Shown in pieces: positions 1-28,331 of a stretch of DNA of 64,000 nucleotides (its first letter is position 1; each line of letters opens with the position of its first letter). Origin of the DNA: Clostridia bacterium. GTDB lineage: Bacteria > Bacillota > Clostridia > Monoglobales > Monoglobaceae. The stretch lies in NCBI GenBank assembly GCA_017622215.1, contig JAGARO010000006.1, forward strand, positions 1 through 64,000, read 5' to 3'. Position numbers and translations under genes: made by a program. The notes beneath the pieces were generated by a model, which had not been told where the DNA came from, ran no database searches, and worked only from the letters and a program-made list of their open reading frames with translations.

Positions 1-168
1 ACTAACGTTTTTTGTAAAGTTCGTTAAAACCTTTGGAATTGACAAGGTTCCAATCCAATACAGATTTCACCTTGTGCAATTGTCGTAATATCTTTATTCT
101 AAAGTATATTACCGCTTTATCACTGTTTACTTTTCAAACATCACTCGCTGTCTTGCGACAGCTTTAAC

Positions 169-377: not shown

Positions 378-660
378 CTATAATATAATACAAATTAAGC
401 CTCCGCTGCCTTCGTTTATAATTCTTGTAAGTGTTTCCCTGAGTTTTATTCTTGCATCCTCAGGCATATGATACAATTTATTATTCAGTCCCTCATTCAC
501 AAGCTCGTGAAGAGATTTTCCGAAAATATTACTCTGCCAGATTGATTTCGGGTCATTTTCAAATTCATTAAGCAGATAATGCACAAGCTCTTCGGACTGT
601 TTCTCTGTTCCTACTATTGGGCTTACCTCTGTTTCAATATCTGCCCTTATCATATGTATT
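378..660 (-). CDS. spoIVA: spoIVA 3' segment (last 91 codons), separated from the 5' segment
   Basis: This is the C-terminal part of the spore-coat morphogenetic ATPase SpoIVA. From codon 653-651 it reads MIRADIETEVSP..., continues through GTEKQSEELV and ends in INEGSGGLICIIL, closely matching the family C-terminus, which in Bacillus subtilis is needed for SpoVM binding and proper assembly around the forespore. The six codons before it (to an ATG at 671) belong to the inserted element, there is no ribosome binding site, and it is unlikely to be translated alone. Joined at the core 652-660/27075-27083 it completes the 5' segment at 27077-28273 in the same frame, giving 490 residues against about 492 in B. 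subtilis. It therefore looks like a gene held in two pieces and not a decayed pseudogene: both parts are free of frameshifts and stops. Confidence 0.95.
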
Positions 661-681: not shown

Positions 682-2355
682 TTAGCTGCATAGTAACTGA
701 TAATTAAATTTCATTTCATATTCTTTTAAGGCTCTTGTATTTCCTCCCCGTGTTTTTATTACAGTTCCCTCTGTTTTGCCTCCAGGTGCAACCTTTAATT
801 GTATTTTAAGGTCTATTTCATCTTCCTCTTTACTTTTAGCAACTATAATTTTATCAATAAAACTATCAAAAACATTTTTCCCAAGCTCATCAGTAAATTT
901 CATTTCATTTTCAATGCCAAAGCGCAGATTTTCTATTGACTCTTTTTGGTCAAGACTTCTTTTTTCTTCCTCATCAAGTTCCAAGAGCTTATTCTTAAAG
1001 CTTTCTATTTGACTGTTAAAAATACTATTTCGTTGTTCAAATTCTTCATTGGAAAGTCTGTTGTCAAGGGTTAAATCCAACAACTTTTCTTTTTTTAAGT
1101 AAACTGCGTCCATATCTGACTGAATTTTATGCCTTGCTTTTCCAATAGCTTTTGTTCCTCCGCTTTGACTATATATCTCAATCAATTCATTTACTATATC
1201 CTTTTTATCATATAGAATTTTATTATACACCTCACTCATCACAGCATCAATCTCTGTTTTATAAATCAACGGACTTTTACACTTGTTACCGTTTGCGTAT
1301 TCTTTGCAAGTCCAAAGCTCCTTATTCCCTGATTTATATTTATAAACTGTGTGATGGTAACAGGTTTTATGTTCTGCACAAATAAGCTTTCCCGAATATA
1401 AATACTTATTCTGATAGCTTGTCTTATTCTCGCTTGTCATTTTCATGCTTCGCTCTTTTAATTTTTTATTCGCTCTCTCCCATAACTCCTGCGACACAAT
1501 AGGAGGCACAGCATTGTCATCCTCATACAATATCCATTCATCAGGTGAGACACGGATTATTTCATTACTTAAAAAATTTACCTTATGAGTTTTATTTCCA
1601 CAGTAAAATCCTTTATATTTGGGGTTAGTAAGAATTCCCTTTATTGATGAAAATGAAAATGGATTGCCGTTAGAATTCTTAAACCCCAAGTCAGATATAA
1701 CCTTTGCTATTTTTCTTACTCCATAATCCTCGTTTGCATACATATCAAATACTTTTCTTACCATTTCTGCCTCTTCAGGAACAATTATCAATTTGCCTTT
1801 TTCCTTGCGATATCCCCATATGCTGTTATTCCCTAAAACTGTTCCCTTTTTAATAGATTCCCTGAAACCAAATTTTAATCTTTCGGATATTTTCCGCGAT
1901 TCCTCCTGGGCAAGACTTGCCATAGTAGTAAGTCTGAAATCGCAATCTTCATCAATTGTATTTAAATTATCATTTTCAAAAAGAACTGCAACACCATAGG
2001 ATAACAGCTCTCTTGTACAACTTAAGCTATCTAGTGTGTTTCTTGCAAATCTTGATACCTCTTTTGTGCAGATAAGGTCAAATTTCCCAAGCTTTGCATC
2101 TCTCATCATTTCTATAAAGCTGTCTCTTTTGTCAATTTTTGTTCCTGTAAGACCTTCATCCACATAACCTCTTATAAATGTCCAGTTAGGATTTCTCTCC
2201 AACAGATTTTCAAAATAGGTCTTCTGCGCTTCAAGGGAATGCAATTGGTCATACTTATCAGTGGAAACTCTTGCATAGTAAACAACCCTTAAATTAAAAT
2301 CAGAAATTCTTTTATGAAAAGCCTTCATATCCTGTCGTATTTTATATATATTCAC
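682..2355 (-). CDS. Large serine recombinase of the spoIVA element
   Basis: A 557-residue large serine recombinase that should catalyse integration and excision of the element. Residues about 23-170 form the resolvase catalytic domain, with nucleophile Ser31 in YYARVSTD; about 190-290 is the recombinase DNA-binding domain (GYRKEKGKLIIVPEEAEMV...); about 320-375 is a zinc ribbon (CAEH...C...CKEYANGNKC); about 390-500 is charged coiled coil. Length and order are normal for the family that includes the skin recombinase SpoIVCA. The start is a GTG at 2355 with AGGAGAG seven bases upstream. It ends 22 bp from the left core, the usual int-attP proximity. It lies downstream of a 55-codon gene and a SigE-like promoter, so mother-cell expression is plausible but not shown. 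Confidence 0.95.
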   Translation of the reverse strand: MNIYKIRQDMKAFHKRISDFNLRVVYYARVSTDKYDQLHSLEAQKTYFENLLERNPNWTFIRGYVDEGLTGTKIDKRDSFIEMMRDAKLGKFDLICTKEVSRFARNTLDSLSCTRELLSYGVAVLFENDNLNTIDEDCDFRLTTMASLAQEESRKISERLKFGFRESIKKGTVLGNNSIWGYRKEKGKLIIVPEEAEMVRKVFDMYANEDYGVRKIAKVISDLGFKNSNGNPFSFSSIKGILTNPKYKGFYCGNKTHKVNFLSNEIIRVSPDEWILYEDDNAVPPIVSQELWERANKKLKERSMKMTSENKTSYQNKYLYSGKLICAEHKTCYHHTVYKYKSGNKELWTCKEYANGNKCKSPLIYKTEIDAVMSEVYNKILYDKKDIVNELIEIYSQSGGTKAIGKARHKIQSDMDAVYLKKEKLLDLTLDNRLSNEEFEQRNSIFNSQIESFKNKLLELDEEEKRSLDQKESIENLRFGIENEMKFTDELGKNVFDSFIDKIIVAKSKEEDEIDLKIQLKVAPGGKTEGTVIKTRGGNTRALKEYEMKFNYQLLCS

Positions 2356-2370: not shown

Positions 2371-2538
2371 TTATTTTCTAATTCCCTGCTTAATTAGAAC
2401 TTCCTTAGCATCAAAATACATCTGTTCTGAAATTATATTTTTTTCAAAAAGCTTTTCGTTTATGTAGATTTTTACTTCGTTATTAAAACGATTATAATTG
2501 TTTATTAATTTTTCATCGTTTTTAATCTGACATGACAT
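2371..2538 (-). CDS. Small protein before the recombinase; candidate directionality factor
   Basis: A 55-residue protein beginning MSCQIKNDEKLINN and ending KEVLIKQGIRK. Start at 2538 is chosen because AAGGCAGG lies 8 bases upstream; longer versions back to 2598 lack such a site and would begin at or upstream of the predicted transcript start. The C-terminal half (LFEKNIISEQMYFDAKEVLIKQG) resembles the short SHOCT-like helical motif of small proteins often encoded before serine recombinases in clostridial elements. It ends 15 bp before the recombinase, so the two are probably co-transcribed. Serine integrases need a small partner for excision (SprB in SPbeta is about this size); this is the best candidate here, by position and size only. 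Confidence 0.6.
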   Translation of the reverse strand: MSCQIKNDEKLINNYNRFNNEVKIYINEKLFEKNIISEQMYFDAKEVLIKQGIRK

Positions 2539-2596
2539 TTGACATACCTGCCTTTTTTCAATAATTTGTTTGTACATAGATATGAATGTTACTTTC

Positions 2597-2625
2597 AAAA
2601 TATGTATACAGTATTGATACTATTG
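2597..2625 (-). promoter_or_regulatory. Possible SigE-type promoter for the recombinase unit
   Basis: On the minus strand CAATAGT (2619-2625) and CATATTTT (2597-2604) are 14 bp apart, resembling the mother-cell SigE pattern kmATAtt-14-CATAcaaT. The -10 keeps CATA and the final T. The transcript would start near 2590, just before the 55-codon gene. A/T-rich DNA makes chance matches common, so the call rests partly on context. Confidence 0.45.
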
Positions 2626-2650
2626 ACAAATAATTAAGTCATGATATAAT
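2623..2650 (+). promoter_or_regulatory. SigA promoter of the nucleotidyltransferase-fold gene
   Basis: TTGACA (2623-2628) and TATAAT (2645-2650), both perfect, with a 16-bp spacer. Reads right into the gene at 2696. Its -35 overlaps the -35 of the SigE-like promoter on the other strand, so the two directions may exclude each other. Confidence 0.8.
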
Positions 2651-26950: not shown

Positions 26951-27001
26951 CCTTTATATACCGATATATATACATATATTTACGTTGACTTTTCACACAA
27001 A

Positions 27002-27041
27002 AATATGCACCATTAAATTATCACATTTAATGGTGCATATT
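27002..27041. repeat. Perfect 17-bp inverted repeat just inside the right end
   Basis: Arms 27002-27018 and 27025-27041 are perfect complements with a 6-nt loop. It lies 34 bp inside the right core, over the last codons of the aberrant spoIVA reading frame and upstream of the operon promoter. It could terminate transcripts of the 5' spoIVA segment (a weak T run follows on the minus strand) or bind a dimeric regulator or accessory recombination protein. Confidence 0.7.
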
Positions 27042-27061
27042 ATATATTTATAACACTTGGG

Positions 27062-27083
27062 TTTGTAGCGGTTAATATGTATT
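27062..27083. other. Right attachment site (inner arm plus core)
   Basis: Inner arm TTTGTAGCG at 27062-27070, core ATATGTATT at 27075-27083. To the right, spoIVA codons ...GCTCCGTCA continue. The circle junction would place this arm opposite CGCTGCAAA (664-672) with the core TG at the exact centre of symmetry. A non-palindromic central dinucleotide is what sets directionality for serine integrases. Confidence 0.85.
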
Positions 27084-28273
27084 GACGGAGCCGATGCCTT
27101 AAGCTTTACGCCGAAACGACTGCCCTGTTTTACAATTTCAGGCTCCTCCAGAGTTAAGTCTGTTATTTCAGGAGTTACTATACCGTAACCTGTTCTTTCC
27201 AAGTCGCTTAAGGCTACCGCAATCTTATCGTACTCCTTCTTCATTCCCGCAAGGTCCATAAAGAGTCTCATTATTTCGCCCTCGTTTTCAGCCTTAAAGC
27301 CTGTTTGTTCATCAATCATTCTGTAAAACAGTTCTTTCGGAGTATTAAGATGAAGTATAGCTGTGCCGTCAGCAGGATTTACAGAAACATATCCGTTATC
27401 ATCAAAAAAATCTTCCTTTTCAAGATTTTCTGCAAAAGCTTTTATATCTGAAATCTTATTTATTTCGCCTGTGGCATTGACTATTGCCTCTCTTATTCCC
27501 TTTTTCAGCCAGTTGTCATCATCAAGCATCTCAATCCAGTCAGGAATCTCAATTCCTATCTCTTTAACAGGGAATTCAAAAAGCATTTTAGCCATTATAT
27601 CTTCAAGGGCATCCGCTGTCATTTCAAGGCAGTTTACAGGAATTACTGACACGCCGTATTTTTCTTCCATTTTCTCTGCAAGATTTATTGTATTTTCGCT
27701 ATATGGTTCAGCACTGTTTAAAAGAACTACAAAAGGCTTTCTTATATCCTTAAGTTCTCCTATAACCCTTTCTTCCGCCTCTTCATATTCATCCCTTGGA
27801 ATATCAGTTATACTTCCGTCAGTAGTAACTACAATTCCAACTGTGGAATGGTCATTTATTACCTTTCTTGTACCAAGTTCTGCGGCGTCCCTAAACTCCA
27901 TTGGCTTATCAGACCAGGGGGTCATAACCATTCTTGGATTTTCATCCTCAATCTGTCCCATGGCACTGTCAACTACATAGCCTACACAGTCAATCATCCT
28001 CACCTTTGCGTGAGCATCCTCGCCCACAGGAATTTCAACTGCTCTTTCAGGAACGAACTTTGGCTCTGTTGTCATTATTGTTCTTCCCCCTGCACTCTGG
28101 GGAAGCTCATCCATTGCCCTGTTCCTCTTATACTCATTTTCAATATTAGGAATTACAACTGTATCCATAAACCTTTTTATAAAGGTGGATTTTCCTGTTC
28201 TTACAGGGCCGACAACTCCTATGTAAATATCCCCCTGGGTCCTTCCTGCTATATCCTTATAAATATTATTCAT
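27077..28273 (-). CDS. spoIVA: spoIVA 5' segment (codons 1-399), interrupted by the element
   Basis: SpoIVA is the ATPase that polymerises on the forespore surface as the base of the spore coat. Residues 1-399 are here: Walker A GPVRTGKST (22-30), DELPQSAGGRTIMTTEPKFVP, VRMIDCVGYVVD, TPWSDKPM, and DEPEIVKQGSRFGVKLKASAPSIH at the break. Past the break the frame runs into the element and adds 27 unrelated residues, stopping at 26993. Without excision the 426-residue product would keep ATP-binding regions but lack the C-terminal assembly domain. The ATG at 28273 has GGAGGA seven bases upstream. Completed by codons at 653-378. Confidence 0.96.
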
Positions 28274-28303: not shown

Positions 28304-28331
28304 AGTCTATGAAGGAATTTTACTTTTATGA
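28304..28331 (-). promoter_or_regulatory. Possible SigE promoter of spoIVA
   Basis: TCATAAA (28325-28331) and CATAGACT (28304-28311) on the minus strand, 13 bp apart, fit the SigE pattern expected for spoIVA, which is SigE-dependent in B. subtilis. The predicted start near 28297 gives a leader of about 25 nt. Match is moderate. Confidence 0.5.

What the first reader, a model, noticed from the sequence alone, without database searches (positions are those of the whole stretch)
2371..2625. SigE-like promoter and a 55-residue candidate directionality factor upstream of the recombinase
CAATAGT-14-CATATTTT on the minus strand resembles mother-cell SigE promoters, as used by spoIVCA of skin and by spoIVA itself. 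The first gene after it encodes a 55-residue protein with a SHOCT-like tail, immediately before the recombinase. Serine integrases excise only with a small directionality factor; in SPbeta that factor is of similar size and sporulation-induced. This gives a simple circuit: SigE turns on both spoIVA and its repair.
Basis: partly seen in the sequence, partly recalled or inferred. Interest (0 to 1): 0.75.

Follow-up and report, generated by a model that had tools for sequence, protein, structure and literature searches.

The report
Sporulation-timed excision switch inside spoIVA
A 26-kilobase mobile DNA element splits the essential spore gene spoIVA, and a tiny gene beside its recombinase, which appears to be switched on by the same sporulation signal as spoIVA, probably tells the recombinase to cut the element out so that the gene is repaired; similar elements split spoIVA in several families of Clostridia.

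Summary
The 55-residue ORF (2371-2538, -) is real, under purifying selection, and lies directly before an intact large serine recombinase (LSR, 682-2355). The LSR belongs to a 26,423-bp element that splits spoIVA between 9-bp cores AATACATAT (652-660, 27075-27083). Joining the flanks gives an intact 490-codon spoIVA.

Every sampled genome with a close LSR has spoIVA split. In a 196-genome class sample, 7 of 145 genomes with the SpoIVA C-terminus had it split (5 families). A homologue of the small protein is in every spoIVA element whose LSR-upstream region was readable. Even the severed 3' part of spoIVA is under strong selection (dN/dS about 0.01), so excision probably restores it.

It aligns in five diverged elements. 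With a trailing GTACAAA-type box it occurs only before this small gene (5) and spoIVA (3); 0 expected.

Best reading: a SigE-driven directionality factor plus the LSR excise the element in the mother cell. RDF activity and SigE dependence are inferred, not shown.

The parts
2371..2538 (-). 55-residue candidate recombination directionality factor (SHOCT-like two-helix protein)
   Evidence: ORF; homologues next to related LSRs; purifying selection among homologues; model
682..2355 (-). Large serine recombinase: Resolvase, Recombinase and zinc-ribbon domains, 557 aa, intact
   Evidence: Pfam; relatives
2599..2605 (-). -35 (ACATATT) of the conserved SigE-type promoter of the small gene
2577..2584 (-). 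-10 (CATATCTA) of the conserved SigE-type promoter, 14 bp from the -35
2569..2576 (-). TGTACAAA box directly after the -10, shared with spoIVA promoters of relatives; function unknown (possible SpoIIID or operator site)
2597..2625 (-).
652..660 (-). attR core AATACATAT
   Evidence: sequence
27075..27083 (-). attL core AATACATAT; half-site ACAAACCCAAG follows on the element side
   Evidence: sequence
27075..28273 (-). 5' part of spoIVA (codons 1 to about 400)
   Evidence: TIGR02836
378..660 (-). 3' part of spoIVA (last 90-odd codons)
   Evidence: TIGR02836 and SpoIVA_C; selection
28304..28331 (-). SigE-type promoter of spoIVA itself: TCATAAA-13-CATAGACT
27005..27038 (-). Hairpin (ATGCACCATTAAAT...ATTTAATGGTGCAT) just inside the attL end, probably a terminator
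   Evidence: read from the sequence
2623..2650 (+).
   Evidence: read from the sequence; NTP_transf_5

Best explanation
This is a sporulation-gene-intervening element in spoIVA. In vegetative cells it stays integrated and spoIVA is broken. When SigE becomes active in the mother cell it transcribes the 5' part of spoIVA and, from the promoter at 2605-2577, the two-gene unit small protein + LSR. The small protein acts as recombination directionality factor (RDF): it lets the LSR recombine attL with attR, so the 26.4-kb circle, which carries a polysaccharide gene cluster, leaves the terminal mother-cell chromosome and spoIVA is repaired, while the forespore keeps the element. Supported by sequence: split gene and matching cores, conserved pairing of small gene and LSR, SigE-type promoter shared with spoIVA, selection on both halves of spoIVA. 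Inferred: RDF activity, SigE dependence, mother-cell-only excision.
For: Restored spoIVA is open over 490 codons and 97% identical to the intact gene of a same-genus genome. All nine sampled genomes with a close LSR have split spoIVA. Severed 3' part: 28 synonymous against 1 non-synonymous change between two split genomes. Small-protein HMM hits strongly only LSR-linked ORFs among 4,944 ORFs; strong purifying selection on it. SigE-type promoter: nine independent elements above controls, p 1e-5; aligned site in five elements, G031 found afterwards; composite 8 observed, all at this gene or spoIVA, 0 expected. LSR has its own perfect SigA promoter in G399, G243, G282 and G107 and the small gene has none. 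Genome encodes SigE, SigF, SigG, SigK. Precedents: CD1234 in PMC5025042, GirX in PMC5595907.
Against: No experiment. The window's promoter alone is only marginal (shuffle p 0.096). The g44 small-gene promoters are weak (score 3.4). The small protein has no detectable homology to SprB and no significant structural match. The composite pattern was partly shaped on the sequences it was tested on. An LSR-linked small ORF of G008, not known to be in spoIVA, also has a SigE-like site (6.96).
Confidence: 0.74

Rival explanations
1. The small protein is an LSR-linked accessory other than an RDF (transcription regulator, stabiliser or integration cofactor), and the RDF lies elsewhere in the element.
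For: SHOCT-like proteins are mostly of unknown function; no homology to SprB; small ORFs of this kind also precede LSRs of elements not known to sit in sporulation genes.
Against: It is the small gene found in every readable spoIVA element, from 6 to 39 kb with otherwise different cargo, and it has the SigE-type promoter even where the LSR has a SigA promoter, the arrangement expected of a timing RDF.
Confidence: 0.15
2. The unit is transcribed constitutively (SigA or read-through) and the timing of excision comes from elsewhere.
For: LSRs of four g44 elements have perfect SigA promoters; C. difficile CD1231 is constitutive (PMC5025042); the window's SigE-type site is marginal on its own.
Against: No SigA-type promoter of the small gene beyond 9-10 of 12 matches; the aligned SigE-type site recurs in five elements and is shared with spoIVA.
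Confidence: 0.08
3. A dead insertion: spoIVA is a pseudogene and the organism no longer sporulates, or the split is an assembly error.
For: Fragmented 14-contig assembly of a reduced 1.18-Mb genome; the contig begins just after spoIVA.
Against: The same split occurs in two genomes held as one contig (G181, G243) and in several families. Both halves, the LSR and the small ORF are intact and constrained. The sporulation sigma factors are kept.
Confidence: 0.03

Closest known systems
skin element of Clostridioides difficile (sigK; LSR CD1231, RDF CD1234; PMC5025042)
   Same: LSR plus small protein; small gene under a SigE promoter; excision repairs a sporulation gene in the mother cell; in four spoIVA elements the LSR has a SigA promoter, as CD1231 does
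   Different: Target is sigK, not spoIVA; CD1234 has 72 residues and no database similarity was reported; in the window the small gene and LSR form one unit
gin element of Bacillus cereus (gerE; GirC and RDF GirX; PMC5595907)
   Same: Non-phage element of 28.6 kb, 9-bp core, LSR plus very small RDF (42 residues), both expressed in sporulation
   Different: Target gerE, acting late; three recombinases; GirX gene not next to the LSR gene by the paper's map; GirX has no conserved motif
SPbeta prophage of Bacillus subtilis (spsM; SprA, SprB; PMC4191935)
   Same: LSR plus a 58-residue RDF induced in sporulation
   Different: Active phage; SprB shows no homology to the small protein
yin element of Clostridium botulinum (yabG; PMC10747680)
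   Same: Intervening element with an LSR, a putative small RDF and a putative mother-cell sigma promoter
   Different: Prophage-like, SigK-type promoter, reported in one strain only; the spoIVA elements recur across families

Membership tests
Sporulation gene-intervening elements (skin/gin type) | Foreign element splits a sporulation gene between short direct-repeat cores; joining the flanks restores the frame | tested here: met
   9-bp cores, 490 codons, no stop
Sporulation gene-intervening elements (skin/gin type) | Element encodes an intact serine recombinase | tested here: met
   557 aa with all three Pfam domains
Sporulation gene-intervening elements (skin/gin type) | Excision in sporulating mother cells | not testable with these tools
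   Only indirect: constraint on the severed 3' part
Recombination directionality factor of a serine integrase | Small protein encoded with the integrase and inherited with it | tested here: met
Recombination directionality factor of a serine integrase | Needed for attL x attR and inhibits attB x attP recombination | not testable with these tools
   Needs an in vitro or plasmid assay
SprB family | Sequence homology to SprB (YotN) | tested here: not met
   hhalign probability 0.1
SHOCT_2 (PF20612) | Score above the curated cut-off of 24 bits | tested here: not met
   No hit for the window protein; homologue 16.3 bits; more distant LSR-linked ORFs 29.4 and 55 bits
   Score 2.92; 18 of 75 controls as good
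SigE-dependent promoters | Match to the lineage's SigE consensus with correct spacing and conservation, at 2605-2577 | tested here: met
   Score 6.09; five aligned elements; composite shared with spoIVA
SigE-dependent promoters | Transcription lost in a sigE mutant; mapped 5' end | not testable with these tools
   Needs RNA work

The most novel reading that the evidence does not exclude
SHOCT-like 45-70-residue proteins encoded directly before LSRs are a widespread, so far unrecognised family of directionality factors in Clostridia. In the spoIVA-intervening elements this factor has come under the same SigE-type composite promoter as its target gene, making a self-repair circuit that recurs across families.
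Probability: 0.55. Interest if true: 0.85.

Novelty: new variant of a known kind. Interest (0 to 1): 0.72.

Why it matters
spoIVA was not among the interrupted sporulation genes named in the papers read (sigK, spsM, spoVFB, gerE, yabG), and the library searches found no spoIVA element. It is an early, SigE-level gene, so the element must leave as soon as the mother-cell programme starts. The elements recur in several families, some in genomes held as one contig, so the question of how one small protein sets direction and timing becomes testable. A family of LSR-linked small proteins would also offer directionality factors for many orphan integrases used as genome tools.

Tried and rejected
A SigA promoter before the small gene: nothing better than 9-10 of 12 matches. 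SprB homology: none. PDB sequence search with the small-protein profile: only chance matches. PDB fold search: no E below 0.001; a helical hairpin is too generic, and the weak hit to the SPbeta integrase was not used. Viral contigs for the LSR and phage records for the small ORF: nothing. The last whole-genome pattern search was set with a 3-4 bp gap before GTACAAA by mistake, so it could only find the spoIVA-type variant; it gave two hits in six genomes, both upstream of spoIVA, and says nothing about the 5-bp variant of the small gene. Structure of the LSR-small protein complex was not attempted because the tool takes single unaltered proteins.

Full report
Setting. The window is the first 64 kb of a 113-kb contig of a 1.18-Mb, 14-contig genome. 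Its ORFs show an N-terminal SpoIVA (26993-28273, -) that ends in junk residues and a C-terminal SpoIVA (378-671, -), about 26 kb apart. The piece between is bounded by AATACATAT (660-652 and 27083-27075, -). Joining the flanks at that core gives an open 490-codon spoIVA, 97% identical to the intact gene of a same-genus genome, G001. The element is 26,423 bp long and filled mainly with genes that look like polysaccharide synthesis (by eye; for three of them).

The small gene. The ORF at 2371-2538 codes MSCQIKNDEKLINNYNRFNNEVKIYINEKLFEKNIISEQMYFDAKEVLIKQGIRK. A rumen genome labelled uncultured Ruminococcus (L003; same contig as G034:C144, 9,127 bases) has an LSR 63% identical, preceded by a 53-aa homologue 47% identical. 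Further homologues precede the LSRs of G393, G067, G107, G010 and G048. In four ~6-kb elements of genus g44 the homologue lies upstream of the LSR's neighbour; in G181 and G399 that neighbour was read as a dockerin-bearing glycosidase. An HMM run on 4,944 ORFs from all loci matched strongly only these LSR-linked ORFs, plus one new member at the end of the contig that holds G031's spoIVA 5' part (E 1.7e-21). Between G393 and G034, 21 of 28 synonymous but only 5 of 131 non-synonymous sites differ. More distant LSRs in the family have 47-68 aa ORFs in the same place, some scoring over the SHOCT_2 cut-off. The structural model is a two-helix hairpin (mean pLDDT 85, from an alignment of two sequences).

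Recurrence. In the order, spoIVA is also split in G010, G022, G031, G034 and G048, and only a C-part was found in G036, G009 and G020, some at contig edges. In a class sample of 391 genomes, the nine with a close LSR (the window's genome included) all have split spoIVA; the elements measure 5.9, 6.1, 6.2, 6.3, 21.9, about 24, 26.4 and 39 kb, the ninth (G034) being unmeasurable. Among 196 genomes filtered for at least 90% completeness, 145 have the SpoIVA C-terminus and 7 of them, from 5 families, have it split. Two insertion sites exist. Site 1, that of the window, has near-palindromic attP arms, clearest in G034: CTTGGGTTTG...ATACATAT...CAAACCCAAG. Site 2 is about 20 bp downstream and used by another LSR type whose ORF runs in frame into SpoIVA's C-terminal part. 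The G067 element, from another family, carries the same kinds of cargo as the window's, with an NTP_transf_5 gene near the small gene and a DegT-type aminotransferase next to the spoIVA 5' part.

Is it alive? G181 and G399 are both split; their severed 3' parts differ by 28 synonymous and 1 non-synonymous change. Their LSR and small protein are also constrained (dN/dS 0.05 and 0.04). G000 against G001 gives 0.008 for the 3' part, but G001 is intact, so part of that divergence may predate the insertion. Constraint on a cut-off, promoterless gene end is hard to explain unless the gene is regularly repaired. The genome encodes SigE, SigF, SigG and SigK, and a SigH-like protein was assigned by eye.

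Promoter. A SigE-type matrix was learned from 22 spoIVA upstream regions (TCATAtT-13..15-CATAnacT). The best site, ACATATT-14-CATATCTA, scores 6.09, reached by 3 of 75. Upstream regions of the small gene in nine elements (one g44 representative) outscore the controls, p 1e-5; the matrix was trained on spoIVA only. In the window, G393, G034, G031 and G067 the site lines up with the same 14-bp spacing and is followed by TGTACAAA, or TATACAAA in G034 (G067 was lined up by eye because the automatic alignment misplaced it). That composite occurs 8 times in 406 kb: five before the small gene, three before spoIVA, none elsewhere, 0 expected in 20 resamplings. The pattern was shaped partly on these sequences; G031 was found afterwards. 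In G399, G243, G282 and G107 the LSR has its own perfect SigA promoter TTGACA-16-TATAAT and the small gene has none.

Mechanism. Taken together: SigE transcribes spoIVA's 5' part and the small gene, with the LSR in the same unit in the window and G067. The small protein, as RDF, switches the LSR from integration to excision; spoIVA is repaired in the mother cell only and the forespore inherits the element. The logic is that of skin in C. difficile (PMC5025042) and gin in B. cereus (PMC5595907). RDF function, SigE dependence and cell-specific excision remain inferred.

Known or new. The papers read name sigK, spsM, spoVFB, gerE and yabG as interrupted genes (PMC10747680). No paper on a spoIVA element or a SHOCT-type RDF turned up in seven searches of an open-access library that lacks most subscription journals, so novelty is provisional. 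The small protein shows no homology to SprB; CD1234 and GirX sequences were not at hand.

Limits. Most relatives are unnamed and many are fragmented. In G034 the LSR contig is not linked to the spoIVA halves.

Noticed in passing
L097 2114-5995 (also L100): ~6-kb spoIVA elements of G181 and G399: The element carries an AgrB gene, a 44-aa AgrD-like ORF, a GHKL sensor-kinase gene and a GH53 glycosidase with a dockerin: what looks like a quorum-sensing module inside a split sporulation gene.
   Followed up: partly
L062 5492-7411 (-), L063 3597-5471 (+): In site-2 elements (G010, G048) the LSR ORF reads in frame into the SpoIVA C-terminal part, so an LSR-SpoIVA fusion would be made before excision.
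   Followed up: partly
   Followed up: no
window 2696-26857; L101-L102: A polysaccharide-type gene cluster is the cargo of two spoIVA elements from different families; it would be lost from the mother cell at sporulation.
   Followed up: partly
L069 (G001), spoIVA attB region: The intact spoIVA of the same-genus genome has CTCCACCT where the window's core reads ATACATAT, so this site may resist the integrase.
   Followed up: no
L103, L003, L067, directly after the small-gene -10: A dyad TTATGTA-CAAA-TACATAA (one mismatch in L003) overlaps the expected transcription start of the small gene in G393, G034 and G031; possible repressor or SpoIIID site.
   Followed up: no
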